Positions 3,582-58,760 of a stretch of DNA of 64,000 bases are shown piece after piece; position 1 is the first letter of the stretch; each line of letters opens with the position of its first letter. Made by a program: the position numbers and the translations under genes. This stretch comes from Vitis vinifera (taxonomy: Eukaryota; Streptophyta; Magnoliopsida; Vitales; Vitaceae): assembly GCF_030704535.1 (NCBI RefSeq), contig NC_081808.1, positions 20,262,501 through 20,326,500 on the forward strand, read 5' to 3'. Below the pieces are notes generated by a model that saw only the letters and a program-made list of their open reading frames with translations, was not told the DNA's origin and did no database searches.

Positions 3582-3584
3582 CTG

Positions 3585-15442: not shown

Positions 15443-15676
15443 ACAGAGATATCCTTTATGCTTAGAACTGTAGCCAATAAAGGTGCATTTAACTGATCGA
15501 TATGCAAATTTATGGCGATTAAAAGGGCGGAGAAAAGGATAACAAGTGCAACCATAGACATGAAGAAAAGATTAATTTGGTAGACAATGGTAAAAAGTCT
15601 TATATGGAGAAGAAAAATTCAGCACAGAGGAAGGAAGCCTATTAATCAAATATAAAGCAGATTGGAAGTCAAAAGG

Positions 15677-16747
15677 TCAATATTTATGTGGAATAGAAGC
15701 ATGAGCAAGCAAGGAAAGACCTACTTCAACCACATGCCTATGTTTTCTCTCCACACAACCATTTTGTTGAGAAGTGGATGGACAAGATACTCTATGCAGA
15801 ATCTCAAACTTACACAAGGTATTAGTAAAGGCTTGAAACTCTTCTCCCCAATCAGTTTGAATCATTCTAACTTTAGTATCAAATTGAGTCTCAATCATTA
15901 CTTTGAATTGCAAAAATGCAGAGATAGCTTGATTTTTAGAAGCTAGTAGATACAACCAAGAAAATCTTGTATGGTCATCCACAAAGAGCACAAAGTATCT
16001 GGCACCATTAGCACCAACAACAGGGTCAAGACCCCATAGATCAGAATGTACAAGAGCAAAAGGCCGAGAGGCTCTGGATTCAGACAAAGTAAAAGGTAAG
16101 CGATGACTCTTTTCCATTTGACAAGGTTCACAAACACCTGTCCAATGTTCTGGGGGCAAGCTACAAGGACTCAGAACTTTATTGACTATTTTACATGCAA
16201 GATGGCCTAACCTGAAATGCCATAGAACTGCCTTATTGGGAAGTTGTAATGTAGATGACATACATGGGACCTCAGTTGTCAAGCTTGTTCTTCCAGCAAG
16301 TTTATTATCATCAGGATCTTGATATCTTCTACTAGGTGTTGAAGACGACAGTTTGTATAAGCCATAGTTAAGGTTGCCTTGGAGAAGAGCCTTCTTCGAA
16401 GCTTGATCCTTCACCACAAATCCATTGGTAAAGAGTTCCACAGTAACATTATTGTTAGTACACAACCTATTCACACTTATCAGATTGGTTGTCAGTTGTG
16501 GAACATGTAAAATATTCTTTAGATTTAATGACCGAGAAACTGAAGAAATAGTGGAGTGTCCAATATTTGAGATATTTAAACGATTACCATTTCCAACGAT
16601 GACTTTGTCTGAACCAGCAAATGGAGTATGTGAATTCAAATTGTTGAGATTTGGAGTTAGGTGATGCGTAGCTCCGGTATCCATGTACCAGCTTCCATCT
16701 CCAACAGTGGACGGAGTTGCAACCATTGCAGCAAGCTGATTGTTCAT
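15677..16747 (-). pseudogene. Copia pol, protease and integrase part
   Basis: Contains an aspartic protease active site (YMDTGATHH), the GAG-pre-integrase HHCC zinc region (LWHFRLGH...CEPCQMEKSH), and an integrase core with acidic residues in HSDLWG, FVDDHTRFSW and QTDWGEEF followed by NGCVERKHRHV. QTDWGEEF departs from the commoner QSDGGGEF. The frame is lost at the HKY position and the following 230 bp contain a stop. Confidence 0.9.
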
Positions 16748-17766
16748 TGTTGGTTGATAAGTTGATCAAATCTATGATAGCAATTAATCGCAATGTGACC
16801 ATATTTACCACACACTTGGCATTGTGGTTTTCCATTGCTGCCACCAGAAACATTATTGTAGTTTCCAGATGAGTAAAAATGGTTATTAAAGCTACCTCTT
16901 CCTGGACCATGTCCAAAATTTCCACCATTGTTGTTATAGTGGCCTCTCCCACGGCTTCTACCAAAATTTTGATGATTAAATTGTTGTGGATTCTAACTGC
17001 CTCTACCTTGAGTCTTGAATTGACCAGACTTTTGATTTTTTTTTTTTTTGTGACCTTGAAGGTTCATTGTTGCAAAATTTGCTTGTAGGAGATTTGTTTC
17101 TTTTGTTGTGTGTTGTTGTTCCAATCAATTTTCATGAGTCAAGAGCATGCTGTGAATTTCTTCTAGGCTTAATGATTCATGCCCAGAGGTAACTGAAATG
17201 ACAAACAAATTGTACTCTACTCTGAGTCCTGCTAGTAAATAGAGAATTCGATCTTGCTCTGTAATGTTTTCTCCAATTGCAACCAGGTTATCTACAATGG
17301 ACTTGATTTTGAGTAGATATTCCATCATACTCAATCCTTATTTCTTTGTTGTTTGCAGTTGGAAGCGAAGCTGCATGATACGAGCCTTTGAAGCTGCTGA
17401 AAATTTTTTCTCCAGAGCAGTCCAGATTTTTGATGCAGTATCAAGTCCGATAATTTGTGCCATCACTCCTTCTGTTAAAGAAGAATAGATCCAACACATT
17501 ACTAAGCGATTCTGACGTTGCCATATATTGTATTCTGGATTTATGTTCTCTGAATCGCCAAGAAAACGTGAAGAAGCAGGGATTTTGCCATGGATCATCT
17601 CTTCAAGGCCATTTGCAATGATGATGTTCAACATCTAAGTTCGCCACAGTAAGTAATTTGATTGATCAAGTCTTACCGCGAATGCTTGATTCAATGATGG
17701 CATTGTATGATGAGTAAAACTGGAGTTAGGATGATCCGTGGAAGATGTTGATCCTTCTGATGCCAT
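16748..17766 (-). pseudogene. Copia gag
   Basis: Starts at 17766 (MASEGSTSS...). The LLWRT segment that opens Copia-type Gag is followed by an in-frame TAG at about 17638, where the family has Gln. Gag then continues (IIANGLEEMIHG) in two blocks, 17634-17338 and 17334-17125, separated by another stop. A CCHC knuckle (CQVCGKYGHIAINC) is recognisable near 16830-16790 in a shifted frame. Confidence 0.8.
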
Positions 17767-33025: not shown

Positions 33026-33138
33026 TTTCTATATTTTCTTGGCAATGTGGTTTGAGTCTGTATATAAGATTTTTAGTTTTTGGATTCTCTATAGCTTGTG
33101 ATTTTTAAAGGTATATGACATGTCTATGGAAATGACAG

Positions 33139-35557
33139 GTACAAGTGACAGTTGTTGATGTATCTACCCACCAAAACGAGATTGACAGTGTGGGGGATTT
33201 TATATTTGTACCCAGAAAGGATATCCTCTCTTGCTATTTTGGGTCTATGGAACAAACACCTGGCCCACTGCCAGAGGACAGAGGCAAAGCTGTTGGCATA
33301 ATGAGTAAAGCACTTGAACATTACCTTAAGAAAGCTCAGGAGGATCATGTTCTTGCTGGAGCAATTGGTATTGGAGGAAGTGGAGGCACATCTATTATAT
33401 CATCTGCTTTTAAATCTGTTCCCATTGGAATGCCTAAGATTATTGTATCAACTGTAGCTAGTGGTCAAACTGAACCTTATGTTGGCACCTCAGATTTAAT
33501 ATTATTTCCATCAGTAGTGGATGTATGTGGGATTAACAATGTAAGTAGGGTTGTTTTATCAAATGCTGGTGCTGCTTTTGCTGGAATGGTGATTGGAAGG
33601 CTCCAGGCGTCCAGAGATTCTTTAAGTAGTAATGAAAAGTTCACTGTTGGCGTAACCATGTTTGGAGTTACAACTCCATGTGTAAATGCTGTCAAAGAAA
33701 GATTGGTTAAAGAAGGATATGAGACTCTGGTTTTCCATGCCACTGGAACAGGTGGAAGGGCTATGGAGGATCTTGTCAGAGGGGGATTTATACAGGTACA
33801 CTTGCCAAGTTAGCACTACTGTGCATTGAAAAAGTTTCTAGCATGATCATAATACACATTTTGTTAAATGTAATTGACCTTTCAATCTTTGGCAGTTGAC
33901 CAGAAAACATGACTTTGAAGAAGTATCAGGCCGTTGCATTACACTTTTAATGCTTCTTCCTATACATGTTTCTAAACTGGACTATTAATTGAAAGATTAT
34001 TGGACCAAATTTACTTTGATGCGTCTAATTTCAAGCTTAAAGTTGTTGAAGTAAAACTGAAGCCAATAAAAGGAGATGGTGTTTTTTGATTGTTGAAATT
34101 TTAGAGCTCAAGGGGTTGGCTTAACCCTTGATCAGGCTTGCTTGAACTGGAACCAAGAACGTGTCTTAGTACCATTGAATGGAGCTTTGTTTGAGATAAG
34201 GAGGTAGATGAAATGTCAATGATCTGAACATGAAATGCTTGTTATTTTCCCTTTTTGTGTGTGTACTTTATCAAATTAATGTAAGCACTCAGAGTTCATC
34301 ATTAATTATCTGGTTTATATTTTTACATTCTCGCTTCTTATCTATAAAATACTCCTCAAGATTTGGCTTTAGATCATCGATTTAACTGCCTCTAAGTTGG
34401 TACTAACCGGTGTCAATTAAATCCATTTTTGTGTCCTTTTATTCAGGGTGTTTTGGACATCACAACAACATCTTCAAATTGATAAATAGTAGTTTTTTCA
34501 TTCATACTTTCATTCGTTCATGTACAAAGTATATATAGAGGGTAATCACCATTCTAAGAATGGGAAAGAATGATACAAGGAAAGAATGATATAAGGAAAT
34601 AACAACTAATATCCTAATATCTCAACTTTCCTAATATCTCAACATTCCTAATATCTCAATATTCATAATATCTCAACTTTCCTAATATCTAAACATTCCT
34701 AATATCTCAACATTAAATGATATAAGGAAAGAATGATATAAGGAAAACATTCTTAATATCTCAACACAACAGAGGTTGCAGATTATGTAGTTGGAGGTGT
34801 CATGGCTTGTGACAGTCCCGCTTTGACGCCATGATAGAGAAGAAGATCCCTTTAGTTATGAGTGTGGGAGCATTGGATATGGTGAATTTTGGAGCCAAGA
34901 CTACCATACCTTCTCATTTACTGAAAAGAAATACCCATGTACATAATGAGCAGGTATTGGGGTCTCTTCATGGTTTTTCTCATCTTTAACTCTATTCCAG
35001 CTAGGTTAATTCATTAAACATATGCACCCTAATTTTAGCATGATATAATCCCTGTGTATATTTTGTTCTTGCCATGCCTCTGGTCTCAGGACTTTAAATT
35101 TGATAGTGTCATAGTTAGTCTTTTATGGAGATGATAAGTTTACTTTCATTAATCATGCCATGGTACTGACCGAAGAGATGCCCCTTGCATGGATTTCTCA
35201 TTGCTTATTGTTTGCAGGTATCTCTTGTTCGAACTACGGTAGATGAAAACAAGAAATTTGCTGGCTTTATAGCAAACAAACTGAACAAAGCATCATAAAA
35301 GGTTTGTGTTTGCCTTCCACAGAAAGGTATCTCTGCTTTGGATGCACCAGGGAAGCCCTTTTATGATCCTGAGGCTACTGTTACTCTAATAAATGAACTA
35401 CGTACAGAAGCTTATTCAGACAAATGAAGATCGACAGGTACCATTATTACATATCAGATGGTTTCTATTTCAATTGAGGATAGTGTTGTTCGTGTGCAAG
35501 CTATTGCAGATGCTGCACATAGTATTAATCCTGAGGTTATTGTGCTCTGCCATGGAG
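33139..35557 (+). pseudogene. Tm-1-like protein gene (UPF0261 domain), broken
   Basis: Relatives include tomato Tm-1, which inhibits a tobamovirus replication protein; most plant homologs have an N-terminal UPF0261 domain and a C-terminal TIM-barrel-like domain. Exon 33139-33795 (219 codons, phase 0, AG/GT borders) is intact: AGAIGIGGSGGTSIISSAFK, STVASGQTEPYVGTSDLILF, TMFGVTTPCVNAVKERLVKE. The next exon (34447-34953) is split by a 297-bp insertion and carries a 2-base frameshift near 34826. The following one (35218-35440) has a TAA near 35297 and another shift. A last piece (35464-35557, VQAIADAAHSINPEVIVLCH) belongs to the C-terminal domain. The exons between, most of the second domain, and exon 1 are missing. 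It is clearly non-functional as a whole. Confidence 0.85.
34468..34766. mobile_element. Small LTR-like insertion in a Tm-1-like exon
   Basis: The insert is bordered by CACAACA on both sides (34461-34467 and 34765-34771). It splits the codons of the ITTEVADY region. It contains repeated CCTAATATCTCAACATT motifs and starts TGTTGAGATATT when read on the minus strand. Its size and form suggest a solo LTR or fragment. Confidence 0.6.
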
Positions 35558-40388: not shown

Positions 40389-40402
40389 GTATAGTATAAT
40401 AA

Positions 40403-42490
40403 TTAAATCTGTCTAATTAATTTCTTCTTTAATAATGAATCAATTTCTTGTTTACAATATTCTAAAAGCTTTTCATTCATTTGAATCGGCCTAGCTTTGG
40501 TGGGAATTTTGGACTCATCAACATTTTGAATGTAAGGTAAACTTATTTCATGTTTCTTTCTTGACCAAAAAGCATTAGGAAGATCAGAACAAATTTCATT
40601 TTGAAAAAGATCTTGAATCTCTTTTATTTTCTTTTTAACTTTATCTTCTAAAAGTTGTTCATCTACTTTTTTATATTGAATTTCTTTTGATAGATAATTT
40701 ATATGAGCTTTCTTTCTTTGAATTAAATTTATATTCTTATTTATTGAATCACTTTGAACTTGATGTATTTCTTTTTTAGTTAATGGATATATAAAAGGAA
40801 AAAATATGGCATTTCCTAATATTGTAGTTTTGACACCTTCATCATTTACTTGAAACGGATAGAGTAAGGTAATAAAAGGAGTTCCTAATATTAAAGGTTC
40901 ACTCATATTTTGTACTAATATAAATTGAGTTCTAAAACAATAATTATCTTGACATATATGAACATTTTGAAGTTTATATTCTATTTCTAATTTTCCTTTA
41001 TTAGCAGCAAAAAGTTCTTGTCATGTTTTTTCATAATATTTAGTAGGAATTATTCCTTCTTGAATACAATTCATATCAGCTCCTGAGTCTATTAATGCTA
41101 CTATTTCTATTTCAAAATCTTCAACTATAAGTTTTACATTTGTATACCATCTTTGAAAATCTATTTTTGATATTGTATTTATAAATGATTCTATAGGAGT
41201 TATTTTATTAGGTATTATTATTCCTGGTTCTTGGTTTTCAGTAGTTTCAACTAAATCTTGCTTATATTGTATTACATTTCTAATTTGTTCATTCTCTTGT
41301 TTTATTTGATCATTTTCTTGTTTTATTATTTCATTTTCTAATTTTATTTGTTCATTATCTAATTTTAATTGATTTATTTGACTTTTTATTTCTTTTATTT
41401 CTTCTTCCAAGTCTTTAATGGTTATTGGCCTTTGAGTCTTTTTGAATCTATTATAAATTTCATCCATTGAATATTGATTAGGTTTGATGTCTTGAGTTTT
41501 ATTTGGATTTTCAGTGAGAATTAAATTTTTTAGATTTTGTAAATAATTTCTTTGTATTTCTTCATCTTGAATTTTGTCTACAACATCAAAAAATATTTGC
41601 TTATCTACTTTTGAAGATATTACATTTATCTTTTTGATTTTATTTTCTTCTTTTGATGTTTCATTAATTTCTTTTGGATTTTCTATTTTTGTTGTTGTTG
41701 ATGTTTCTGTTGATGTTTTTGTTTCCTTCACCTCTCCCGGGGCAGAAGAAAACAAAATTTGATTAAATTTTGTTTCACTTGACTTTTGTTTTGAATTTTC
41801 ATTTAGCTTTTGATTAATTTTACTTGACTCTTCTTGGATTTTGATTTGTTGATCTAATAATTTTTTATTATGTGGAGAATTTCCTATTGCTTTTCTTGAA
41901 GTTAATGTTGCAATTCTTTTAAGGGGTTTCCTATATTTGAAAAAAGGAATAGTCATCTTAACTTGTTGCATATATTTTTCATATTGTTTTCTTAATGCAT
42001 TTCTAACTTGAGGAGGAAGTTGTTGAAAATAATTTCTTTTTGCAGTATTTTCAGGAGAAAAATAATTTGCTTTAATTAATTCTACTTCAGGAACAAAAGG
42101 ATTTCTTTTAATGTATCTTTTCCTAATGATATTTATGTTTAAAGGAGGTTTATCATGAGATAAATTTTTTGACTCAGACTCTTCTTTAAAAAGAGAAATT
42201 TCAAGAACAAAGTTTGAACTATTTTTTAGTTGATTTTCTATTTGATTTTATTCTTCATTAAATTTTGAATTATTAAATTTTATATGATGACTCTATGATG
42301 ATGCAGCTAATGATGCAGCAGATAATGATGCAGATGATGATGCAGTTGATGCATTTGAAAATCTCATTATCTTATATGAAGAACTTTCTAAATTATATGC
42401 AGAATTATTTAATGCAGATGCAGAATTACCATGGGACCTAAGAGATGTGGAAGAACTATTTCTACTTAATTCCCTAATAATATTACTCAT
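40403..42490 (-). pseudogene. Deleted component-A copy M1: N terminus to 5' part of RT
   Basis: Same reading frame as component A from its ATG (42490) through the coiled-coil region, the retropepsin (DSGAD) and the start of RT. It is cut where the RT sequence meets a leader sequence (AATTAGAC shared by both), about 12 bp before host DNA. In-frame stops occur near 42292, 42251 and 41019. Several sites that are stops in component A are open here, and the reverse, so the damage is partly independent. Confidence 0.85.
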
Positions 42491-42780
42491 TGTCACAGAC
42501 AATAATCACAATTTTGTTCTTAATCAATTCAGATAATTTCCTGAACAGGGACCACCACAAGCGGATCAACACGGGACTTATGCTCCTTCTGCCCTTAAAC
42601 ACCGCTATCAAAGGCTGACCAATCCGTTCACAGGAAATTCAACCCGAACTAAGTCAGGACTAAATCTGCGATTAGTTACTGTTCCAACTCGTAACACCAC
42701 TCGGTTCTCAAGCAGAAAATGGCTCTGATACCATTTGCACCCAGGACATACAACAGTTCGTGCACACAATAATTAAATAA
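42491..42780 (-). other. Viral leader and primer site of M1
   Basis: Leader nearly identical to 44250-44540 and 49785-50075. The tRNA-Met primer site is at 42733-42722. The promoter part of the leader is missing because RT sequence of M2 is fused directly to it at 42781. Confidence 0.8.
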
Positions 42781-43790
42781 TTAAATCTGTCTAATTAATT
42801 TCGTCTTTAATAATGAATCAATTTCTTGTTTACAATATTCTAAAAGCTTTTCATTAATTTGAATCGCCCTAGCTTTGGTGGGAATTTTGGACTCATCAAA
42901 ATTTTGAATATAAGGCAAACTTATCTCATGTTTCTTTCTTGACCAAAAAGCATTAGGAAGATCAGAACAAATTTCATTTTGAAAAAGATCTTGAATCTCT
43001 TTTATTTTCTTTTTAACTTTATCTTCTAAAAGTTGTTCATCTACTTTTTTATATTGAATTTCTTTTGATAGATAATTTATATGAGCTTTTTTTCTTTGAA
43101 TTAAATTTATATTCTTATTTATTGAATCACTTTGAACTTGATGTATTTCTTTTTTAGTTAATGGATATATAAAGGGAAAAAATATGGTATTTCCTAATAT
43201 TGTAGTTTTGACACCTTCATCATTTACTTGAAAAGGATAGAGTAAGGTAATAAAAGGAGTTCCTAATATTAAAGGTTCACTCATATTTTATACTAATATA
43301 AATTGAGTTCTAAAATAATAATTATCTTGACATATATGACCATTTTGAAGTTTATATTCTATTTCTAATTTTCCTTTATTAGCAGCAAAAAGTTCTTGTC
43401 CTGTTTTTTCATAATATTTAGTAGGAATTATTCCTTCTTGAATACAATTCATATCAGCTCCTGAGTCTATTAATGCTACTATTTCTATTTCAAAATCTTC
43501 AACTATAAGTTTTACATTTGTATACCATCTTTGAAAATCTATTTTTGATATTGTATTTATAAATGATTCTATAGGAGTTATTTTATTAGGTATTATTATT
43601 CCTGGTTCTTGGTTTTCAATAGTTTCAGCTAAATCTTGTTTATATTGTATTACATTTCTAATTTGTTCATTCTCTTGTTTTATTTGATCATTTTCTTGTT
43701 TTATTATTTCATTTTCTAATTTTATTTGTTCATTATCTAATTTTAATTGATTTATTTGACTTTTTATTTCTTTCGTGCACGTAATTATTA
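42781..43790 (-). pseudogene. Deleted component-A copy M2: coiled coil to 5' part of RT
   Basis: Begins inside the coiled-coil region at about 43790 and runs through the retropepsin to the same RT::leader junction as M1 (42781). The polyprotein 5' half and the primer site are absent; the R-type leader (43797-44000) is joined straight to the coiled-coil sequence. The protease region is open here, without the stops of component A. Confidence 0.85.
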
Positions 43791-43795
43791 AATAA

Positions 43796-44265
43796 TTAAA
43801 TCTGTCTAATTATCTCCAAGCATAAAAACAGAAATATTTAATGTCTAATACTGTGTAATTTATTGCAGAAATTTAAGCATAATAACACAAATATTTGAAT
43901 CTGAAAATATTGTTTATTGAAAATATACCTTGATTACAGAGAGTTGATGACTACAGGTTGTTGACAGCAGAGGGATGACTCTAACTCAAAGAAGAAAATT
44001 ATAAGAGAAAAATTTTTGAACTCTCAGAATTTTTGCACTCTCTAATATTTTTTCTTTGAGTTAGAGTCATCCCTCTGCTGTCAACAACCTGTAGTCATCA
44101 ACTCTCTGTAATCAAGGTATATTTTCAATAAACAATATTTTCAGATTCAAATATTTGTGTTATTATGCTTAAATTTCTGCAATAAATTACACAGTATTAG
44201 ACATTAAATATTTCTGTTTTTATGCTTGGAGATAATTAGACATATTTAATCATTTAATTATTGTG
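43796..44265. repeat. Head-to-head inverted repeat of the viral leader
   Basis: The R/leader sequence occurs on the minus strand at about 43796-44002 and on the plus strand at 44053-44262. A spacer of about 50 bp separates them. The arms are nearly identical. A transcript crossing it would fold into a long hairpin. The joint has AT-rich micro-similarity (AATATTTTTT). Confidence 0.85.
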
Positions 44266-44296
44266 TGCACGAACTGTTCTATGTCCTGGGTGCAAA

Positions 44297-44308
44297 TGGT
44301 ATCAGAGC
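44297..44308 (+). promoter_or_regulatory. tRNA-Met primer binding site, component A
   Basis: TGGTATCAGAGC, complementary to the 3' end of plant initiator tRNA-Met and used to start minus-strand DNA. It lies 244 nt before the polyprotein ATG. Confidence 0.9.
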
Positions 44309-44540
44309 CATTTTCTGCTTGAGAACCGAGTGGTGTTACGAGTTGGAACAGTAACTAATCACAGATTTAGTCCTAACTTAGTTCGGGTTGAATTTCCTGT
44401 GAACGGATTGGTCAGCCTGTGATAAGCGGTGTTTAAGGGCAGAAGGAGCGTAAGTCCCGTGTTGATCCGCTTGTGGTGGTCCCTGTTCAGGAAATTATCT
44501 GAATTGATTAAGGATAAAATTGTGATTATTTTCTGTGACA

Positions 44541-47500
44541 ATGAGTAATATTATTAGGGAATTAAGTAGAAATAGTTCTTCCAGATCTCTTAGGTCTCAT
44601 GATAGTTCTGCACCTGCATTAAATAATTCTGCATATAATTTAGAAAGTTCTCCATATAAGATAATGAGATTTTCAAATGCATCAACTGCATCATCATCTG
44701 CATCATTACCTGCTGCATCATTAGCTGCATCATCATGGAGTCATCATATAAAATTTAATAATTCAAAATTTAATGAAGAATAAAATCAAATAGAAAATCA
44801 ACTAAAAAATAGTTCAAACTTTGTTCCTGAAATTTCTCTTTTTGAAGAAGAGTCTGAGTCAAAAATTTTCTCTCTTGATAAACCTCCTTTAAATATAAAT
44901 ATCATTAGAAAAAAATACATTAAAAGAAATCCTTTTGTTCCTGAAATAGAATTAATTAAAGCAAATTATTTTTCTCCTGAAAATACTGCAAAAAGAAATT
45001 ATTTTCAACAACTTCCTCCTCAAGTTAGAAATACATTAAGAAAACAATATGAAAAATATATGCAACAAGTTAAGATGACTATTCCTTTTTTCCTTTGGTT
45101 TTTCAAATATAGGAAACCCCTTAAAAGAATTGCAACATTAACTTCAAGAAAAGCAATAGAAAATTCTCCACATAATAAAAAATTATTAGATCAACAAATC
45201 AAAATCCAAGAAGAGTCAAGTAAAATTAATCAAAAGCTAAATGAAAATTCAAAACAAAAGTCAAGTGAAACAAAATTTAATCAAATTTTGTTTTCTTCTG
45301 CCCCGGGAGAGGTGAAGGAAACAAAAACATCAACAGAAACATCAACAACAACAAAAACAGAAAATCCAAAAGAAATTAATGAAACATCAAAAGAAGAAAA
45401 TAAAATCAAAAAGATAAATGTAATATCTTCAAGAGTAGATAAGCAAATATTTTTTGATGTTGTAGACAAAATTCAAGATGAAGAAATACAAAGAAATTAT
45501 TTACAAAATCTAAAAAATTTAATTCTCATTGAAAATCCAAATAAAACTCAAGACATCAAACCTAATCAATATTCAATGGATGAAATTTATAATAGATTCA
45601 AAAAGACTCAAAGGCCAATAACCATTAAAGACTTGGAAGAAGAAATAAAAGAAATAAAAAGTCAAATAAATCAATTAAAATTATATAATGAACAAATAAA
45701 ATTAGAAAATGAAATAATAAAACAAGAAAATGATCAAATAAAACAAGAGAATGAACAAATTAGAAATGTAATACAATATAAACAAGATTTAGCTGAAACT
45801 ATTGAAAACCAAGAACCAGGAATAATAATACCTAATAAAATAACTCCTATAGAATCATTTATAAATACAATATCAAAAATAGATTTTCAAAGATGGTATA
45901 CAAATGTAAAACTTATAGTTGAAGATTTTGAAATAGAAATAGTAGCATTAATAGACTCAGGAGCTGATATGAATTGTATTCAAGAAGGAATAATTCCTAC
46001 TAAATAATATGAAAAAACAGGACAAGAACTTTTTGCTGCTAATAAAGGAAAATTAGAAATATAATATAAACTTCAAAATGTTCATATATGTCAAGATAAT
46101 TATTGTTTTAGAACTCAATTTATATTAGTACAAAATATGAGTGAACCTTTAATATTAGGAACTCCTTTTATTACCTTACTCTATCCTTTTCAAGTAAATG
46201 ATGAAGGTGTCAAAACTACAATATTAGGAAATACCATATTTTTTCCCTTTATATATCCATTAACTAAAAAAGAAATACATCAAGTTCAAAGTGATTCAAT
46301 AAATAAGAATATAAATTTAATTCAAAGAAAACAAGCTCATATAAATTATCTATCAAAAGAAATTCAATATAAAAAAGTAGATGAACAACTTTTAGAAGAT
46401 AAAGTTAAAAAGAAAATAAAAGAGATTCAAGATCTTTTTCAAAATGAAATTTGTTCTGATCTTCCTAATGCTTTTTGGTCAAGAAAGAAACATGAGATAA
46501 ATTTGCCTTATATTCAAAATTTTGATGAGTCCAAAATTCCCACCAAAGCTAGGCCGATTCAAATGAATGAAAAGCTTTTAGAATATTGTAAACAAGAAAT
46601 TGATTCATTATTAAAGAAGAAATTAATTAGACCCTCAAAATCTCCTTGGAGTTGTGCCGCTTTTTATGTTCAAAATGCTGCTGAAATAGAAAGAGGAGCA
46701 CCTAGATTAGTCATTAACTATAAACCTTTAAATAAAGTATTACAATGGATAAGATACCCTATTCCTAATAAGCAAGATTTATTCAAAAGACTTCATAGTT
46801 CTGTCATTTATTCAAAATTTGATATGAAAGCAGGATTCTGGCAGGTTCAAATAAGAGAAGAAGATAGATACAAAACTGCTTTTACTGTCCCTTTTGGTCA
46901 TTATGAATGGAATGTCATGCCCTTTGGTCTCAAAAATGCCCCTTCTGAATTTCAAAATATTATGAATGATATTTTTAATCCTCATTTTTAGTTCATCATT
47001 GTATATATTGATGATGTTTTAGTATTTTCTGATTCATTATAGAAACATTTTATTCATTTGAAAAAGTTTTTTAATGTCATTAAAGCAAATGGAATGGCTT
47101 GTTTTGCTCCAAAAATGAAATTGTTTCAAACAAAAATCAGATTTTTAGGTCATGAAATTTTTCAAGGAAAAACAAAACCGATTCAAAGGTCAATAGAATT
47201 TGCTGACAAATTTCCTGATGAAATTAAAGATAAAAAACAATTGCAAAGATTTTTAGGTTGTTTAAATTATGTTTCTGATTACTTCAAAGATTTAAGAATC
47301 ATTTGTGAACCATTATACAAAAGACTTAGAAAAAATGCACCTGCATGGACTGAGCATCATACTAGTCTAGTCAAAGAAATTAAACAAAGAGTCAAACGTT
47401 TACCATGCATCAGCATCCCTCATCCAAATGCATTACTCATTGTAGAATCAGATGAATCTAATTTAGGTTATGGAGGCATATTAAAACAAGAATATAACAA

Positions 47501-47840
47501 TCAAGTGCATATAGTTAGATATCATTTAGGGATCTGGTTGGGCGCTCAAATAAATTATTCAACTGTCAAAAAAGAAGTTTTATCAATAGTTTTATGTATT
47601 TCAAAATTTCAAAGTGATTTAATAAATAAAAAATTTCTTTTGAAAATTGATTGCAAAGCTGCAAAAGATATTTTACAAAAAGATGTTAAAAATTTAGTTT
47701 CAAAACAAATTTTTGCAAGATGGCAAGCTTTACTTTCAAATTTTGATTTTGAAATCGAATTTATTAAAGGAGAGTTGAATTTCCTTCCTAACTTCCTTAC
47801 TAGGGAGTTTCTGCAGGGTAAGGATCCTTCTCCATCCTAA
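44541..47840 (+). pseudogene. Component A polyprotein: protease, RT, RNase H (five in-frame stops)
   Basis: Pararetroviral replication polyprotein. One frame from ATG 44541 to TAA 47838-47840. In order: Ser/Ala-rich N terminus shared with component B, an IPFFLWFF block also shared with B, a long coiled coil (about 45630-45780), retropepsin (LIDSGAD near 45950), RT (46550-47030; YIDDVLVFS box), and RNase H with its connection (47060-47800). Stops: TAA 44781, TAA 46005, TAA 46062, TAG 46989 and TAG 47040. There is no movement or coat protein in this component, which is unusual for the family. The 44781 stop is shared with M1, so it predates the copies or was there at amplification. It is not translatable as it stands. 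Confidence 0.9.
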
Positions 47841-49135
47841 TGGGCACTCCCGTTAGGCCTCAGCTTCCTTCATCATCTAAGAAAACCAAAGCTTCATATG
47901 CTATGATTTCAAACTTTTCAAATGTTCGTCTTACTTTTCCTTTACAAACATCAAATTCCTTTCAAGTTTTGAGTCCAGATTTTCCTCCTCTTCAACCTTC
48001 AAAAAGTTTTATTCAAGCTTCTAAATCATCCCCTAAAAATATTTTTTTCCAAAGACAATCCAGCCCTAACACTATTTCAACCTTACCTTCTCCTTCTCAG
48101 TCTCCTTCTCAATCTCCTTCTCCTTCATTTTCTTATAGTCAATATGTCAAAAAACCCAAAACATTAGAAATTGCTTTCATTGAGCCAGAGTTCAATTTTG
48201 AAGAGATTCCTAAAATTCTTCCTTACATCTTTCCTCAAGGAGTCAACTTCAATTCGAATGATCCTTTGAAAACTCGTCAATTCTATGAGTTCATCTTGGT
48301 GGACATTGATTCAGTTGAAATTACTCATAACACTGACAAAAACAATCCTCAGAGGATTGCTTTTTCCAAATGTCAAATTCTCAGAGTCATGACCATTGCA
48401 GATTGGAATAAAAAACCCTTCACTTGTAAAGCTTTTAGTCAACCTTTACATCCCATGAGCTACAATTACATAGACTACATGGATGCTTGGTACAATATGT
48501 TTTACTTACAAAGCTACCAGCATTCCTGGTTCATCCAATTTTCAAGAAATTGCAATACCAAATTTCCTGCTTGGTTTCAAAAATGGTGGACTTTCTTTGG
48601 TCTACTAGATTCAATATTTCCTCCTGATATTCAAGAGAAATTCAACTTCTACAAGAGGAAGACTTCATCACAGAATATCACTCAGCCCAGACTCCTGACG
48701 TTCTGTTCGAGATTAAGAATTCCATGGATTCTCACATGGAACATCATCAAGAAGCAAGAGCAACCTCTTCCTTTTCCATTATCTCTTTCTAGAGAATTCA
48801 GCATCAAATGGTGGGACAAATTCAATCATGATTTTGTATGTCAACAGAAGGTTTTGCAATTAATTTCAACAAGACCCGGATCGTCATATTCAAAGGATTC
48901 ATCAAGATCTTCTCAATGACCGACTCAAGAAGAATTCCTAACTTTGAAAAGCAAATGTCAAGCTTCATTAGCAGCCACCACTGATTTAGAGCAATATCGT
49001 CAAGGACTCATTCAAACGCTCAAACAGTTTGGAGATCAAGAAAATGAAGAAACTGAAGATGCAGTTTTATCAGATGACTCATACGTAGACCCTGAGTTTA
49101 TCCTTTATGGAGGACCTATGGGTCAATCCAAATAA
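47840..49135 (+). pseudogene. Component A ORF2, one in-frame stop
   Basis: The start overlaps the polyprotein stop by one base (TAATG), suggesting coupled reinitiation. 431 codons to 49135, interrupted by TGA at 48917. Ser/Pro-rich N terminus (SPSQSPSQSPSPSFSYS), then a Trp/Phe-rich globular part (WFIQFSRN...AWFQKWWTFFGLLDS) and an acidic C-terminal tail. I recognise no catalytic motif. A downstream ORF of unknown function is known in florendoviruses; the role here is unknown. Confidence 0.75.
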
Positions 49136-49197
49136 AAGATTTCAAGAAATTTTTGTACATCTGTATCTTTGTAAATTTGCTTCCCTGTGTTTATCCA

Positions 49198-49800
49198 GTG
49201 TAAAAAAAAAAAAAAAAAAAAAATGAATAGTGATGAATAGTGGGTCTTGTCACCCACTTTATCCTTGAAGGTAACGTGGAGCTTGGGGAAAGAAAGAAAA
49301 AGGTAAAGATCTTTTACCTTCTGCAGAGATAATTCACTAAGGCTCCAGCTGTCTTTCACATGATGAATTTCAATAATTTTCAAGATTGAATATCAGCTCA
49401 CGTCCGAATCCTCACCTATAAAAGGAGTTTTAACCTTCTTCATCAGGCAGAGCTTGGAAGAGTTCCTACAGCCGAGAGAGAGCTTGGGAAGGTTTCAAGA
49501 GTTTTGAGAGATAGTTTCAAGAGTAGAAAAAATATTAGAGAGTGCAAAAATTCTGAGAGTTCAAAAATTTTTCTCTTGTAATTTTTTTCTTTGAGTTAGA
49601 GTCATCCCTCTGCTGTCAACAACCTGTAGTCATCAACTCTCTGTAATCAAGGTATATTTTCAATAAACAATATTTTCAGATTCAAATATTTGTGTTATTA
49701 TGCTTAAATTTCTGCAATAAATTACACAGTATTAGACATTAAATATTTTTGTTTTTATGCTTGGAGATAATTAGACAGATTTAATTATTTAATTATTGCG
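49198..49800 (+). promoter_or_regulatory. Viral promoter and R/leader between components A and B
   Basis: An A-run of about 22 bp (49201-49222) is followed by promoter sequence with a TATA box (TATAAAA, 49417-49423). A transcribed leader follows, with AATAAA-type signals (CAATAAAC near 49660 and CAATAAATT near 49720) as expected of a caulimovirid terminal redundancy. It ends at the primer site of component B. Confidence 0.75.
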
Positions 49801-49831
49801 TGCATGAACTGTTGTATGTCCTGGGTGCAAA

Positions 49832-49843
49832 TGGTATCAGAGC
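49832..49843 (+). promoter_or_regulatory. tRNA-Met primer binding site, component B
   Basis: TGGTATCAGAGC, in a leader nearly identical to that of component A. Confidence 0.9.
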
Positions 49844-50075
49844 CATTTTCTGCTTGAGAACCGAGTGGTGTTACGAGTTAGAACAGTAATTAATCACAGA
49901 TTTAGTCCTGACTTAGTTCGGGTTGAATTTCCTTTGAACGGATTGGTCAGCCTGTGATAAGCGGTGTTTAAGGGCAGAAGGAGCGTAAGTCCCGTGTTGA
50001 TCCACTTGTGGTGGTCCTTATTCAGGAAATTATCTGAATTGATTAAGGATAAAATTGTGATTATTTTCTGTGACA

Positions 50076-53000
50076 ATGAGTAATATTATTAGGAGATTAA
50101 GTAGAGGTAGTTCTTCCAAATCACTTAGGTCTAATGATAGTTCTGCATCATCATCTGCATCATTAACTGCATCATCACTTACTCAAAATATAGTTAATAG
50201 TCAAGAAATAAATATTGCTCAAATAGAAAGTCAACTTCATAATTGGTCAATTCCTCACATGAAAATTAATACAATATATCAACAAGGAAATTTTGAATTT
50301 AATCAAAATTATTCAATAAAAACTGAAGAAAAAACTATATCTCTTAATCAAAATTTAGAAAGTCTTCAATTACTAAGTCAAAATAATATTAATCATCATA
50401 GGAAGAAATTTAATTATATTCACATAGGATTAGTTCAAGTTGCTATAAAACCTTTATTTAGGCTAGGATTAGATATTCCTGTGTTTGCATGCCTTAGAGA
50501 CGCTAGATCTATAAAATTTACTGATTCAATACTTAGCATGATAGATTCAAACCTTGCTAATGGTCTTATTTATTTTAATTGCTTTCCAAACTTTTCTATG
50601 AACATAAATGATCCTAGTATACTTTCTAGTCTAACTTTAAATATTAAAACTAAAAACATGAATTTTGTAGAAGAAGCTCAAACTATAGCAATAATTTATA
50701 GGATATACTATAAAGTCATGACTACTCAATTAAATCCTAGAGCCATATGTCAATCTGTTAAAGATGAAACATTATTATTACAATATAATCCTAATAATAC
50801 TCAAGCTTTTGTTCCTAAAAAATTAAAATGGAATGAAAGTACTCAAGGAAGTCAATGGAAATTAAAAGATTTAACCCATCCAAAACCTACTAAACCTTTA
50901 ACAACTCCTTCAAAAATTATTCAACATACTGATGGTACTATTCAAATAGAATTTTCTCCAGCTTCTAGAAATTCTTTTAATCAAGATTTCATGTCTTCAA
51001 GACCTTCTACTTCAAATGCTAGCTTAAACAGTGTCAATTTTGTTCCAAAAATTCCTATTCCTGTTTATCAACAAAATGAATCTCCTCCTGTGTCTCCTAC
51101 TCATTCGGATATGTTTCCCAATCAAGTCAACATAATTCATAAGAAAAATTACAAAAAGACTCATTTTACTCCTAATGTAGAATGGATAAAATCAGATTAT
51201 TTTTCTCCTCAAAATGATACAAAAAGAGCTTATTTTCAAACATTTCCTTCTCAAACTAGAAATGCATTAAGAAAACAATATGAAAAATATATGAATCAAA
51301 AGAAAATTACTATTCCCTTTTTCTATTGGTTTTTCAAACTTAAAAAACAAAGAAAACAAATTATAACTTTAAGAGATAAAGAAGGACACCAATTAGCTTT
51401 AAAACACTCAGAAAATATTCAAAAAAGAATTTTAACAATAAGCTCAGAATTAGGTTCACAACTACCCTTAAATAATCATCAATTCAATTTTGACAATAAT
51501 TCAATTTCTGCATCACCCTTTAAAATTCCAAGAACTAAAGATGAACAAAGTCCCATAATTTACAAAGACATTAGACAAATTCAGCAACAATTAAATTATA
51601 CAAATCATTCTCTTCAACATGTGAATCAACAGACAACAAAAATTTCTCAATTTTTGTTTTCTTCTGTCCCGGGAGAGAGGATAGGAGAAACAACAACATC
51701 AAAATTACAATTTTCTTCAAAAGTTTCTTCAACTTTATCATCATCATCATCATCTTCTAAGTGTGTAGACCAACCTTTTATTATTCTTATAAATGCTGCA
51801 AAATCAAATATTCAATTAGCAACACCAACAGAAATAATGTTAAAAGAAATACAAATCAGATTAGATAAACTCAATATTAATGGTATCAATCAAACCAAGA
51901 ATCAAATTCTAACCATAACAAAAGGAAAATCAGAAATCAATAAAATAGAAGAACAATTCAAAATGTCTCCTGATTCAATAGTAAAACCTCCTGCAACAGT
52001 CAATGCAATTTCTAATAATTTTGTAAGTAGAAAAAATTATTATTCAAAACCCTCTTTTCCTGATGTCCAATTAGAAGAAAGAAATTATCAATTAGCTGCT
52101 AGTTATGATGGTAGTAGTTTTTATGAATGGAATATAGATGGAATGAGTGAACATCAAATAATAAATTTGCTTCATGAAATGATGATGGCTGCTAATGCAT
52201 ATAGAATCAAGACTAGTAATTCTGACTTTCATGCTGCCGATGCCTTGGTCATAGGATTCACTGGTTTGCTTAAAGGATGGTGGGATCATTATTTGAGTCA
52301 AAATGATAAAGAATATATATTAAATGCAAAAAAGACAATACTAAAAGAAGAAGGAACATCAGTCCAAAGTTATGAAGAAGATGCTGTCAATACTCTAATA
52401 TTTGCAATAACAAAACATTTTATAGGAGATCCAGTCTATTTTCAAGAAAGAACTTCTGAAATCCTTAACAATCTTAGATGTCCAACACTTCAAGATTTTA
52501 AGTGGTATAAAGATATGTTTTTAGTCAAAGTTATGTCAAGACCTGATTGTGGAAATCATTATTGGAAAGAAAAATTTATAGCAAGATTACCCACCTTATT
52601 TGCAGAAAAAGTTAGACAAAGAATAAGAAATATTCATAATGGTAGGATTCCTTATGAGTCATTAACATATGGAGAATTAATTACTTTTGTTAATAATGAA
52701 GGTTTAGCCCTTTGTACTGATCTCAAATTAAAAAGTCAAATGAAAAAAGAAAAACAAGATAATAGAAAAGAATTAGGAAAATTTTGTTCATATTATGGTT
52801 ATGATACATTAGTTGCCCCTTCAAAAAGAAAAAATAAACAAAATAAAATAAAAAGTAAAAAACCCTCAACAGAATCAAAATTTCAAAAGAAGTTTGTAAA
52901 ATCTACTCCTAATAAATCAAAACCTCCAAACAAATCAAATTTAAAAAAGAAAACACCTACTTGTTATAAATGTGGAAAAGTAGGTCATTATTCAAGAGAT

Positions 53001-54692
53001 TGTCAATTAGAAAATAAAATCAATTCATTAGAAATAAGTGATAAACTCAAAAATTTAATGATAGGATTAATGATTGATAAAGAAAATGATGAATCAAGTG
53101 AAAATTATGAATCAAAAGAAGATAATCAGATCCTCATAACTCAAGAAATATCAAGTGAAGAGTCAAGTCTAGAAGAAGAATCAGATAATCAAAAAGATTG
53201 TGATGGTATTTGTGCATGCTCATATAAGTCAATAAATGTGATTTCAAAATATTCAAAAACTCATTTTAACATCATTATTATAAATTATGTTCCCCTCATA
53301 AACTCAATATATTTTCAAATTTGGTATGATAAAGACAAAACCATTAGATATTTGTTTTATTCTTCAATAGAGATACTAACATTTGAACTTTGTTTACAGA
53401 TGGAGCAAGAAAGAATTACATTTGGGAAATTTACTCTTCCAGTATTTCCTAAATGTAATCTGTCATTTCGGATTCATAAAGATATTGAAGGTTTAGACAA
53501 ATCACAAAAATGCATTTTAGACAACCTCTGGAATGCAAAAAGTGATATTCAAAAGTTGGAAGCTTTAAATGCCTTATCTTTCCATTTTAAACAGTTAAAT
53601 GATAAATTAGAAAGTTTTTCTAACCCTTCAAGTTCTGATATACATTGCACCCCAATGGATATAGATCTTGAAAATTTCATTTGCAGGAAAAAAGCAAAAG
53701 GATCCAAAGATGCATTTTCAAAAGATTTTCAAAATGAATTTCAAAAAGAGCTTTCAAAACCAAATGAAGATTCAAAACTTTCTAAGGAAAGTCAAGAATG
53801 TCAAATTTCCAGATTTTCATTTTTCAAGTTAAAAAATTTGGACCTTCTTGAAAGCATTAGACAGATGATATGTGAAAAGGCTAAAGCTACAGGAGAAGCA
53901 AAGCAAGAGCATATCATGCAATTTCTTGCTGACTGTAGCACTTTTGGAATTACTATTCAAGGGATGAGCTTCACTTGGATTTCTTGTTATGACAACACTT
54001 ATAATAATTGTTCAAAGACCGATCCCTTGTGTAGAGAAATTCCATTAGAAAGGCATGACTGTAAGTGTGCTCTTACTTACAGTATATGCAAAGTCAACAT
54101 TGACCTAGACAGTTATAAACCAATAGTCATTAAATTCAACAATGAGTCAATAGAGCTAACTCCAACCCTCCTCATGGACTATGGAGTTCTTTATCAATTG
54201 ATTTTCTCTCATCTTGATCAAACTGATAAATTTGGAAGAAAATTAGCTGTCTGTGTTTTAAATGCCTTCATTAATGATTTCAAATCTGTTGAACTCATCA
54301 TAGAAAGTAAATCTCCTGAATGGTCGAATGATGGAGGAGTCTACCCTGCTCAACATCTCATTTTGTTCAAAGCAAATCAGAGAAAATATCAGTTGTTTGG
54401 TACAGAGGACCCTTGGCCCTGTACTAAATCCAGTCTCAAAAAACAAATCAGACATTGGAGATCAAGAATGATTGCCAGAGACCTTGATTCTGAGATTTAT
54501 AGTTCTTCTAACTATAATCTCATTGCTGAAGACAATATTCAAAAAATCATCTCTGCAAATAACTTTCCTAAAATTCCTCTTTTGTTTCAAACTCAATTTA
54601 CTTATCTTGTTGATAAGTACAAAAAAGAATATGTCCTTGAAGAAGAAGCCAGAAAAACTTTTGAAAAATATCTCTTAGAAATGCTCAGTTAA
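50076..54692 (+). CDS. Component B polyprotein: movement protein, coat protein, C-terminal domain (intact)
   Basis: One uninterrupted frame of 1538 codons. The start at 50076 matches the conserved MSNIIR start of component A. Approximate layout: 1-30 Ser-rich terminus shared with A; 110-235 30K-family movement protein (IGLVQVAIKPL..., CLRDAR, LIYFNCFPNF); 360-440 IPFFYWFF block shared with A; 675-910 capsid core (YEWNIDGMSEHQI, FTGLLKGWWDHYL); CCHC zinc knuckle at 963-976; acidic stretch to about 1050; 1109-1538 a Cys-containing domain (DCKCALTYSICKVN) of unknown role. Protease, RT and RNase H are absent, so this component would depend on A. An open frame this long in an endogenous virus is notable; expression is not shown. 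Confidence 0.9.
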   Translation: MSNIIRRLSRGSSSKSLRSNDSSASSSASLTASSLTQNIVNSQEINIAQIESQLHNWSIPHMKINTIYQQGNFEFNQNYSIKTEEKTISLNQNLESLQLLSQNNINHHRKKFNYIHIGLVQVAIKPLFRLGLDIPVFACLRDARSIKFTDSILSMIDSNLANGLIYFNCFPNFSMNINDPSILSSLTLNIKTKNMNFVEEAQTIAIIYRIYYKVMTTQLNPRAICQSVKDETLLLQYNPNNTQAFVPKKLKWNESTQGSQWKLKDLTHPKPTKPLTTPSKIIQHTDGTIQIEFSPASRNSFNQDFMSSRPSTSNASLNSVNFVPKIPIPVYQQNESPPVSPTHSDMFPNQVNIIHKKNYKKTHFTPNVEWIKSDYFSPQNDTKRAYFQTFPSQTRNALRKQYEKYMNQKKITIPFFYWFFKLKKQRKQIITLRDKEGHQLALKHSENIQKRILTISSELGSQLPLNNHQFNFDNNSISASPFKIPRTKDEQSPIIYKDIRQIQQQLNYTNHSLQHVNQQTTKISQFLFSSVPGERIGETTTSKLQFSSKVSSTLSSSSSSSKCVDQPFIILINAAKSNIQLATPTEIMLKEIQIRLDKLNINGINQTKNQILTITKGKSEINKIEEQFKMSPDSIVKPPATVNAISNNFVSRKNYYSKPSFPDVQLEERNYQLAASYDGSSFYEWNIDGMSEHQIINLLHEMMMAANAYRIKTSNSDFHAADALVIGFTGLLKGWWDHYLSQNDKEYILNAKKTILKEEGTSVQSYEEDAVNTLIFAITKHFIGDPVYFQERTSEILNNLRCPTLQDFKWYKDMFLVKVMSRPDCGNHYWKEKFIARLPTLFAEKVRQRIRNIHNGRIPYESLTYGELITFVNNEGLALCTDLKLKSQMKKEKQDNRKELGKFCSYYGYDTLVAPSKRKNKQNKIKSKKPSTESKFQKKFVKSTPNKSKPPNKSNLKKKTPTCYKCGKVGHYSRDCQLENKINSLEISDKLKNLMIGLMIDKENDESSENYESKEDNQILITQEISSEESSLEEESDNQKDCDGICACSYKSINVISKYSKTHFNIIIINYVPLINSIYFQIWYDKDKTIRYLFYSSIEILTFELCLQMEQERITFGKFTLPVFPKCNLSFRIHKDIEGLDKSQKCILDNLWNAKSDIQKLEALNALSFHFKQLNDKLESFSNPSSSDIHCTPMDIDLENFICRKKAKGSKDAFSKDFQNEFQKELSKPNEDSKLSKESQECQISRFSFFKLKNLDLLESIRQMICEKAKATGEAKQEHIMQFLADCSTFGITIQGMSFTWISCYDNTYNNCSKTDPLCREIPLERHDCKCALTYSICKVNIDLDSYKPIVIKFNNESIELTPTLLMDYGVLYQLIFSHLDQTDKFGRKLAVCVLNAFINDFKSVELIIESKSPEWSNDGGVYPAQHLILFKANQRKYQLFGTEDPWPCTKSSLKKQIRHWRSRMIARDLDSEIYSSSNYNLIAEDNIQKIISANNFPKIPLLFQTQFTYLVDKYKKEYVLEEEARKTFEKYLLEMLS

Positions 54693-54739
54693 GAGATATC
54701 AAGAATCTTTTGTACATCTGTATATGCTCCCTTGTAATT

Positions 54740-55400
54740 ATCCAGTAAAAAAAAAAAAAAAAAAAAAAAGTATATAAAGTCTGCAGGTGTGAAGTGAAAA
54801 AAAAAAAAAAAAAAAAAGTGAATAGTGTTTTGTGAATAGTAAAATTCGCCTTTTACTATGACTCAAAAGTAAAAAGCAAGAAGGTGACTCATTAGCCATG
54901 TGATAAAAATGAAGAGGAAGAAAAGAACCTTACCTCCTGCAATCTCCATACACGTGGAAGACATCAAAGAGACAAAGCCTTTTTTAAGCCCATAGCCTCT
55001 ACTATAAATAAGACTCCAAGGCTTCTTCCAGAGGCAGAGTTCCAATAGCCGAGAGAGAGCTTGGGAAGGTTTCAAGAGTTCTGAGAAATAGTTTCAAGAG
55101 TAGAAAAAATAGAGAGTGCAAAAATTCTGAGAGTTCAAAAAATTTTCTTTTGTAATTTTCTTAGAGTTAGAGTCATACCTCTGCTGTCAACAACTTGTAG
55201 TCATCAACTCTGTATAATCAAGGTATATTTTCAATAAACAATATTTTCAGATTCAAATATTTGTGTTATTATGCTTAAATTTCTGCAATAAATTAGACAG
55301 TATTAGACATTACATATTTCTGTTTTTATGCTTGGAGATAATTAGACAGATTTAATTATTTAATTATTGCGTGCATGAACTGTTGTATGTCCTGGGTGCA
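54740..55400 (+). promoter_or_regulatory. Viral promoter and leader downstream of component B, ending at the primer site
   Basis: Two A-runs (54746-54769 and 54799-54818), a TGACTCAT motif near 54885, a TATA box (TATAAATA, 55013-55020) and the R/leader. Viral sequence stops at GGGTGCA (55400). In the other copies this lies two bases before the primer site, i.e. at the place of the minus-strand discontinuity. Confidence 0.75.
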
Positions 55401-57099: not shown

Positions 57100-58760
57100 T
57101 ATCATTTTTAAAACTAAAAATAATTCATATGTTATCTTCTCTTCCTTAGTGGTGTTTAATCATCCTATATGAAATTTTTTTATATAATTAGACGATGTCG
57201 GTTTCAATGAATTTTCTACATTTCAAATTTTAAGTCCCATCTTCAAAAACTTATGTCTTTTAGAACCATTCTTCAAAAATCCGACTTCCTAAATTAATTT
57301 TCAATTTCAAATATTCGACTATTTACTTTCATCCGTTTAGATATTATTCTTATTATTATTACTATTATTATTCCGTATTTATCTATTTAATTCTTCTAAA
57401 AATTCCAATCATTAAAATTCAAATTCTTCAAAAAATGTGACTTCTTAAATTAATTTTCAATCTCAAAATTTTCACTATTCAAATCCACTCATTTAAATAT
57501 TATGTTTGTTAATTATTATTATTATTTCGTATATATTTATCCTCTTCTAAGAATTGCATTCATTAAAGTCCAATTCCTTCAAAAATCCCATATCCTAATT
57601 TAATTTTCATTCCTAAAAGTTCCATTATTCGTCCGAATGTTACTTTCGTCAATTAGAATTATCATCCCATGTTTATTTATTCATTTAAAGTCTAATCCTT
57701 CAACAATCCAACGTCCTAATTTAATGTTCAGTCCTAAAAATTCCACTATTCGTCTAAACGTTATTTTTATCAATTAGAATTATTATCTCGTAGCCATCTA
57801 ATTATTTAAAGTATAATCCTTCAAAAATTCCACGTCTTAATTTAATTTTTCAATCCTAAAAATTCTACAATTCGTTTAAATCTTATTTTCATCAATTAGA
57901 ATTATAATCTCATACTTATCTATTTATTTAAAGTCTAATCCTTCAAAAATCCAACATCCCAATTTAATTTTCAGTCTCAAAAATCCCACTACATTTTTTT
58001 ATTCATTTAAATATCATTTTTGTTAATCGCTATTTCTGCGTTCACTTATTTCTTTTTTCTAAAAATTCCAATAATTAAAGTTCAATCATTCAAAAATCCG
58101 ACTTTCAAACTTAATTTTCAAAATCTCACTATTCACTTTTCGTTCAAACATCATTTTTGCCAAAATCCGATTTTCTAATTTAAATTTTAATCTCACAAAA
58201 TCTCACTATTCACTTTCATCCGTCCAAATATCGTTTTTGATTAATTAGTAACATTATTCCATACTTACCTATTTATTTCTCTTAAAAATCTCAATCATTA
58301 AAGTTTAATTCTTCAAATTTTCGATTTCTAAATTTAGCTATCTGAAACTCCAATTGTCCTATCTCCGAACTTAATTTTCAGTTCCCAATATTCCAATCAT
58401 CGTATTTATCCAGTTACTCATTTATTATTATCATTATTATTTTTACCATTTTATTCATTCATTTCTAAGAAGTCCGCCTTCAAATGATTTTCAAGATTTC
58501 CAATTTTTATAAATCAACTTTCATAATTTCTACTTCTTAAATAACTTACAATTTTGTTTTCTTTCAAAATTTAACTCCCAAAGTCCCAATTTTCGTAACT
58601 TAAATTTTTTCCTAAAAACCCCGAACTTTCAAATAATTCTTCAAAATCCCAATGTCCTTTTCAAATTTAATTTCTAAATTCTCATTCTTACATTTAATTC
58701 CTAAGAATTCAATTTTCAAATGATCTCTAAGACTCCAATTTTCAAATGAATTCAAAAAAT
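57100..58760. repeat. Degenerate tandem repeat, unit about 120-155 bp
   Basis: The phrase CTAAATTAATTTTCAAT and variants recur near 57290, 57447, 57595, 57716, 57838, 57960, 58108 and 58180. Each is followed by a CACTATTC-like phrase, an ATTATTATT run and TTCTTCAAAAAT-like sequence. Units are strongly diverged. Non-coding. Confidence 0.65.

What the first reader, a model, noticed from the sequence alone, without database searches (positions are those of the whole stretch)
44053..55400. Two complementary pararetroviral components side by side: evidence for a bipartite endogenous caulimovirid
Component A has protease, RT, RNase H and ORF2 but no movement or coat protein. Component B has movement and coat protein but no protease, RT or RNase H. 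Both share a nearly identical ~290-nt leader, primer site and protein start, as genome segments of one virus would. All other known caulimovirids carry these functions on one molecule. As I recall, a bipartite organisation has been proposed for some members of genus Florendovirus, so the idea is known, but this locus shows both segments physically joined in tandem.
Basis: partly seen in the sequence, partly recalled or inferred. Interest (0 to 1): 0.92.

Follow-up and report, generated by a model that had tools for sequence, protein, structure and literature searches.

The report
Grapevine bipartite endogenous florendovirus, compound locus
Two remnants of a plant pararetrovirus sit side by side here, each carrying the half of the viral genes that the other lacks; this looks like a genuine two-part virus fossil, but such two-part viruses, and joined copies like this one, were already described in grapevine in 2014.

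Summary
Observation confirmed. Component A (44048-49583) carries AP, RT, RNase H and ORF2, with no MP or CP match. Component B (49583-55154) carries MP, CP and CCHC in one open frame, with no AP, RT or RNase H match. They share a 565-nt leader/PBS/protein start (96.5%). The host, probably a grapevine (Vitis; inferred), holds more copies. In the 12 of 24 leader places read, 15 full leader-to-leader units are 6 A and 9 B; none is mixed. At 6 of 12 places A and B are joined in tandem through a leader, one of them by a weak match. The shared DUF7588 block splits A from B on one fully supported branch, whereas leaders of A and B intermingle and can be identical. This favours long-separated components with a co-evolving leader over recent deletion derivatives. 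Bipartite florendoviruses and compound A+B insertions in Vitis vinifera are in print (Geering 2014), and B fits the published description of VvinDV component B. The kind is already known; the leader/coding contrast is a modest addition. B's C-terminus shows no detectable ORF2 similarity. Genome-wide marker searches did not complete, so a rare one-molecule parent is not excluded.

The parts
40391..44055 (-). inverted arm made of component A pieces only, rearranged (A positions 5478-5536/1-226, 1601-2585, 186-2585), joined head to head to component A
   Evidence: self BLAST, 97.3-98.9% identity
44048..44540 (+). component A leader (R region, primer site, structured leader)
44297..44308 (+). tRNA-Met primer-binding motif of A
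   Evidence: motif recalled
44541..47840 (+). component A ORF1 region, broken into open pieces: DUF7588 (about 44949-45119), AP (about 45906-46004), RT (about 46695-46982), RNase H (about 47346-47744); no MP or CP match
47822..48919 (+). component A ORF2 open piece, in another frame than the RNase H piece; its end is broken
49137..49583 (+). component A 3' intergenic region with A-run and TATA box at 49417
49583..50075 (+). leader at the A-B joint; primer site 49832-49843
50076..54692 (+). component B single open frame: MP (about 50304-50720), DUF7588 (51180-51362), DUF7746 (52104-52370), coat domain (52443-52751), CCHC (52959-53006), C-terminal region without Pfam match (53061-54692)
54693..55153 (+). 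component B 3' intergenic region with A-runs and its own TATA box at 55003
55154..55400 (+). terminal leader copy ending 2 nt before where the primer site would start; AT-rich DNA without likeness to A or B follows

Best explanation
This is a compound integration of a bipartite endogenous florendovirus (Caulimoviridae) in a grapevine genome, most likely Vitis vinifera D virus (VvinDV) or a close relative. Shown: A carries protease, RT/RNase H and ORF2; B carries movement and coat proteins and an unknown C-terminal region; they share the leader; other copies in the same genome keep the two sets apart. Inferred: each had its own promoter; each RNA starts with nearly the same leader, is primed by tRNA-Met, is copied by A's RT and packaged by B's coat; DNA of both was captured at one chromosomal break together with an inverted A fragment, joined head to tail through the common leader. 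The leader stays alike between components while the coding parts do not, most simply because reverse transcription switches between the two RNAs there or because the same proteins must recognise both (inferred).
For: Complementary domains. 565-nt shared start at 96.5%. In the 12 of 24 leader places read, 34 units start at a post-primer leader: closed units with markers are 7 A (6 with all four A markers, 1 with ORF2 only) and 9 B (all five B markers), 0 mixed; open units 4 A, 1 B; 13 units without markers; no A and B markers neighbour each other on one strand within 2.5 kb without a leader between. Tandem A/B joins through a leader at 6 of 12 places, one by a 20-aa match only. DUF7588 tree, 22 rows (11 A, 9 B, 2 unlabelled; 3 shorter matches dropped): one clean split, 100/100, 0 of 500 label shuffles as low. 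Leader tree, 25 of 34 leaders: A and B interspersed, 5 changes, 57 and 55 of 500 shuffles as low; leader after the primer site, 24 rows: A-B mean identity 97.3%, between A-A 96.7% and B-B 97.9%, some A and B rows identical. Promoters unalike (131 of 200 shuffles score as well) while the leader start is alike (0 of 200). Two ends, here and at C13, stop at the same base before the primer site with different sequence beyond. B's C-terminus has one hit, V. vinifera A5BJS2, 95% over 57% (only proteins of about 299-950 aa were candidates); ORF2 hits V. rotundifolia at 85-89%. Published: VvinBV and VvinDV bipartite, compound insertions; in VvinDV_compB only MP and zinc finger detected.
Against: No labelled VvinDV sequence was available, so the species name rests on inferred host and architecture. 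Published B components have a C-terminal extension homologous to ORF2; here none was detected (BLASTP E 0.13; profile comparison probability 0.3%, thin profiles). Published conspecific A and B share MP; this A has no MP match. The leader trees are weakly resolved (3 of 20 and 1 of 12 inner branches starred; bootstrap unsettled) and hold near-identical duplicates. C5 units may be duplicates of one another, so unit counts are not all independent. Places were chosen by leader likeness; 12 of 24 were not read; none of the 12 read shows B alone. A third closing leader (C2) stops 13 nt further upstream, so the shared end is 2 of 3 ends looked at.
Confidence: 0.85

Rival explanations
1. A and B are two defective deletion derivatives of one conventional monopartite florendovirus that served as helper; only the defective forms were captured here.
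For: Leader and DUF7588 are shared by common descent. Geering et al. say a helper virus cannot be discounted. 12 of 23 other leader places were not read, and the genome-wide MP/RT/CP searches did not complete.
Against: 0 mixed among 16 closed marker-bearing units; DUF7588 differs at about 35-45% of residues between A and B, but against the window's own copy is 91-100% alike among B rows and 79-100% among A rows, so the split is old; promoters unalike.
Confidence: 0.1
2. The pair is an artefact of assembly or later host rearrangement that placed two unrelated florendoviruses side by side.
For: The locus is rearranged, with an inverted A arm; C5 has near-identical repeated units.
Against: A and B are joined through a leader at 6 of 12 places (one by a weak match) on several contigs, in both orders; leader shared at 96.5%; the window's 3-kb flanks find nothing alike in the other fetched stretches apart from one 50-base match at 80%.
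Confidence: 0.03
3. A bipartite florendovirus distinct from the described VvinBV and VvinDV: a third Vitis lineage whose B component has an unrelated C-terminal region in place of ORF2.
For: No detectable likeness of B's C-terminus to ORF2; a single hit in the protein collection (length-limited).
Against: V. vinifera holds a 95% copy, and in VvinDV_compB only MP and zinc finger were detected, which B fits.
Confidence: 0.15

Closest known systems
Vitis vinifera D virus (VvinDV), bipartite florendovirus, components A and B (Geering et al. 2014, PMC4241990; abstract and passages seen)
   Same: host genus (inferred here); A/B split; intergenic region over 90% alike between components; B with only MP and zinc finger detected (PMC9719215, passages seen); compound A+B insertions reported in Vitis
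Vitis vinifera B virus (VvinBV)
   Same: bipartite, Vitis
   Different: its B component has AP and a truncated RNase H (PMC9719215, passages seen), which B here lacks. A V. vinifera RT protein is only 59% identical to A's RNase H piece; which virus it belongs to is not known
Oryza sativa B virus (OsatBV)
   Same: A and B components; mixed loci (6 of 54 in the paper)
   Different: monocot host; bipartite state of separate origin according to the paper

Membership tests
Caulimoviridae, endogenous | RT and RNase H, MP and caulimovirus coat domain, tRNA-Met primer site, no integrase | tested here: met
   no integrase match among the open pieces scanned
Florendovirus (tentative genus; no such name in the NCBI taxonomy copy) | ORF2 protein specific to florendoviruses after ORF1 | tested here: met
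   A has an open frame after RNase H in another frame; of 16 relatives, the 5 named are from plants (3 Vitis rotundifolia, Mucuna, Arachis), 11 are unnamed. Not compared with a labelled florendovirus ORF2
Florendovirus | RT phylogeny within the florendovirus clade | tested here: inconclusive
   59-66% identity to the 9 listed proteins with a plant name (720 hits, 120 listed); the tree of 24 rows has no labelled florendovirus and no outgroup
Bipartite florendovirus | complementary components, intergenic region over 90% identical | tested here: met
   the promoter part of the intergenic region is unalike
Bipartite florendovirus | B polyprotein with C-terminal extension homologous to ORF2 | tested here: not met
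   a weak test with thin profiles; AlphaFold models too poor to use
VvinDV | nucleotide identity of the RT region above the species threshold | not testable with these tools
   published sequences not held

The most novel reading that the evidence does not exclude
Two components separated long enough for their shared protein block to drift to about 62% identity have nevertheless kept one common transcribed leader, exchanged back and forth between them by template switching in reverse transcription: concerted evolution in a bipartite reverse-transcribing virus, readable from its fossils.
Probability: 0.5. Interest if true: 0.5.

Novelty: already known. Interest (0 to 1): 0.35.

Why it matters
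Geering et al. call a bipartite organisation unique among viral retroelements, and the case rests on fossils. This locus and its sister loci give a check of the published claim on copies read here, and the contrast between leader and coding histories turns 'bipartite or two deletion derivatives' into a test that can be repeated on Oryza, Sorghum and beet.

Tried and rejected
Two scans of viral contigs, with an RNase H piece and a coat piece, gave no relatives. None of the names shown in the three protein searches is a labelled florendovirus. B's C-terminus against ORF2 by BLASTP and profile: nothing. AlphaFold models of both were too poor to use (mean pLDDT 32 and 37), so no fold search was made. 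The A-B crossover in the leader was looked for: sites up to column 160 look A-like and column 223 B-like at the joint, but only column 223 separates all A copies from B, so this is left open. 'Bipartite plus tandem join is new' was rejected. PMC3299709 (passages) deals with a Vitis element that Geering et al. equate with VvinBV; not used.

Full report
What is there. Component A runs from the leader at 44048 to the next leader at 49583, B from there to 55154, and a terminal leader copy ends at 55400. Domain scans of pieces give A: DUF7588, AP, RT, RNase H; B: MP, DUF7588, DUF7746, caulimovirus coat domain, CCHC. A's AP match is below the family cut-off in the forward copy (15 against 20.7 bits), but the DSG motif is visible and two copies in the inverted arm pass it. 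A then has an ORF2 in a different frame. B is one open frame of 1543 codons stop to stop; A's ORF1 is split by stops and frame changes into several open pieces.

What is shared. A and B are 96.5% alike over 565 nt, from the start of the shared leader to about 70 nt into the first protein. Ungapped likeness falls away over the next 100 nt, with short alike blocks after a gap. The promoters upstream are unalike (131 of 200 simple shuffles score as high), each with its own TATA box (49417, 55003), while the stretch just below the TATA box and the A-run region are alike (0 of 200 shuffles each). The leaders after the primer site fold into a long stem in both components (z-scores -3.4). B's leader, scanned from an assumed RNA start, has five upstream ATGs whose frames close after 5-17 codons, all before that stem, as in the ribosome-shunt leaders of caulimovirids (recalled). 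The one Pfam domain that both carry is DUF7588; its surroundings are 41% identical over 177 aa.

An inverted arm, 40391-44055, is built from A pieces and joined head to head. The outer right end stops two bases before the primer site, and a second closing leader (C13) stops at the same base; what follows differs, and at C13 it looks by eye like inverted viral sequence. A third (C2) stops 13 bases further upstream. Ends at the primer site fit capture of linear reverse-transcription products (inferred from two of three ends). The left 500 bases are 82% AT and the right 90 bases 91% AT, with a 52-base TA run about 820 bases outside the left end, in keeping with the published link to TA repeats.

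The host genome. The tool placed the window at C4:20262501-20326500 of a 495.6-Mb assembly and found 43 leader matches (a lower bound, 40 of 290 candidates scored). That it is Vitis is inferred from its size, from the 95% match of B's C-terminus to V. vinifera A5BJS2, the single hit among 6426 candidates of limited length, and from ORF2 hits in V. rotundifolia. The matches fall into 24 places by my grouping, the window among them. I fetched 20 stretches covering 11 other places; 12 could not be read.

Counting units that start at a post-primer leader in the 12 places read (which repeats with one query piece put in frame): 34 units; closed with markers 7 A and 9 B; open with markers 4 A and 1 B; 13 without markers; mixed 0. 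Fifteen of the closed units carry the full marker set (6 A, 9 B). No A marker lies next to a B marker on one strand within 2.5 kb without a leader between. A/B tandem joins through a leader occur at 6 of 12 places: the window, C10 2.54 Mb, C13 13.77 Mb, C5 25.09-25.10 Mb with alternating A and B units, C5 2.54 Mb, and C7 10.10 Mb, the last by a 20-aa match only. Both components occur at 7 of 12 places, leaving C7 aside; 4 show A only; none shows B only (read off). Units at C5 are near-identical and may be duplicates of one another. The genome-wide marker searches that would complete this test did not complete (and repeats).

Two histories. DUF7588 DNA (22 rows: 11 A, 9 B, 2 unlabelled; 3 matches under 65 residues dropped) splits A from B on one branch with 100/100 support, in all 200 bootstrap trees, with 0 of 500 label shuffles as low. 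Leaders do not (25 of 34 kept, short or separated ones dropped: 11 A, 9 B, 5 unlabelled): the tree needs 5 label changes, strongly supported branches alone force 2, and 57 and 55 of 500 shuffles are as low. With only the part from the primer site on, which belongs to the unit it precedes, 24 rows (one B row without an exact motif dropped) need 5 changes, 3 of them forced, with 231 and 242 of 500 shuffles as low; identical sequences occur in A and B; A-B identity (mean 97.3%, 88 pairs) lies between A-A (96.7%, 55) and B-B (97.9%, 28). Resolution is low in both leader trees and the bootstrap of the second had not settled. Selection on packaging or translation signals and template switching would both give this pattern; identical leaders in A and B fit exchange better. 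This is inference.

Known or new. Geering et al. 2014 (PMC4241990; abstract and passages seen) describe bipartite florendoviruses in V. vinifera (VvinBV, VvinDV), O. sativa and S. bicolor, with intergenic regions over 90% alike, and compound A+B insertions in Vitis and Oryza. The 2023 review (PMC10377300, passages) repeats the bipartite claim and adds sugar beet. CAULIFINDER (PMC9719215, passages) states that in VvinDV_compB only MP and a zinc finger were detected, which B fits, whereas VvinBV's B has AP. So the finding is real and already known in kind, probably down to the virus species. One point does not fit: the ORF2-like C-terminus reported for B components was not detected here; either it has diverged beyond detection or this B carries something else.

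Noticed in passing
window 11-911 and 2827-3716, minus strand: Pieces of SAM-dependent carboxyl methyltransferase genes (Methyltransf_7) in four open frames.
   Followed up: no
window 13511-16765, minus strand: Copia-type retroelement with RVT_2, integrase and gag_pre-integrase domains.
   Followed up: no
window 57252-58432: AT-rich repeat array with periods of about 121 and 156 bases outside the right end of the locus.
   Followed up: no
window 33136-33813: Open frame matching UPF0261, probably a host gene piece.
   Followed up: no
window 53061-54692: B's 543-aa C-terminal region has no Pfam match and one hit in the length-limited protein search, from Vitis vinifera; its nature is open.
   Followed up: partly
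G000 C5:25056000-25102500 (L022-L027): About 46 kb with several near-identical A and B units in both orientations, partly alternating.
   Followed up: partly
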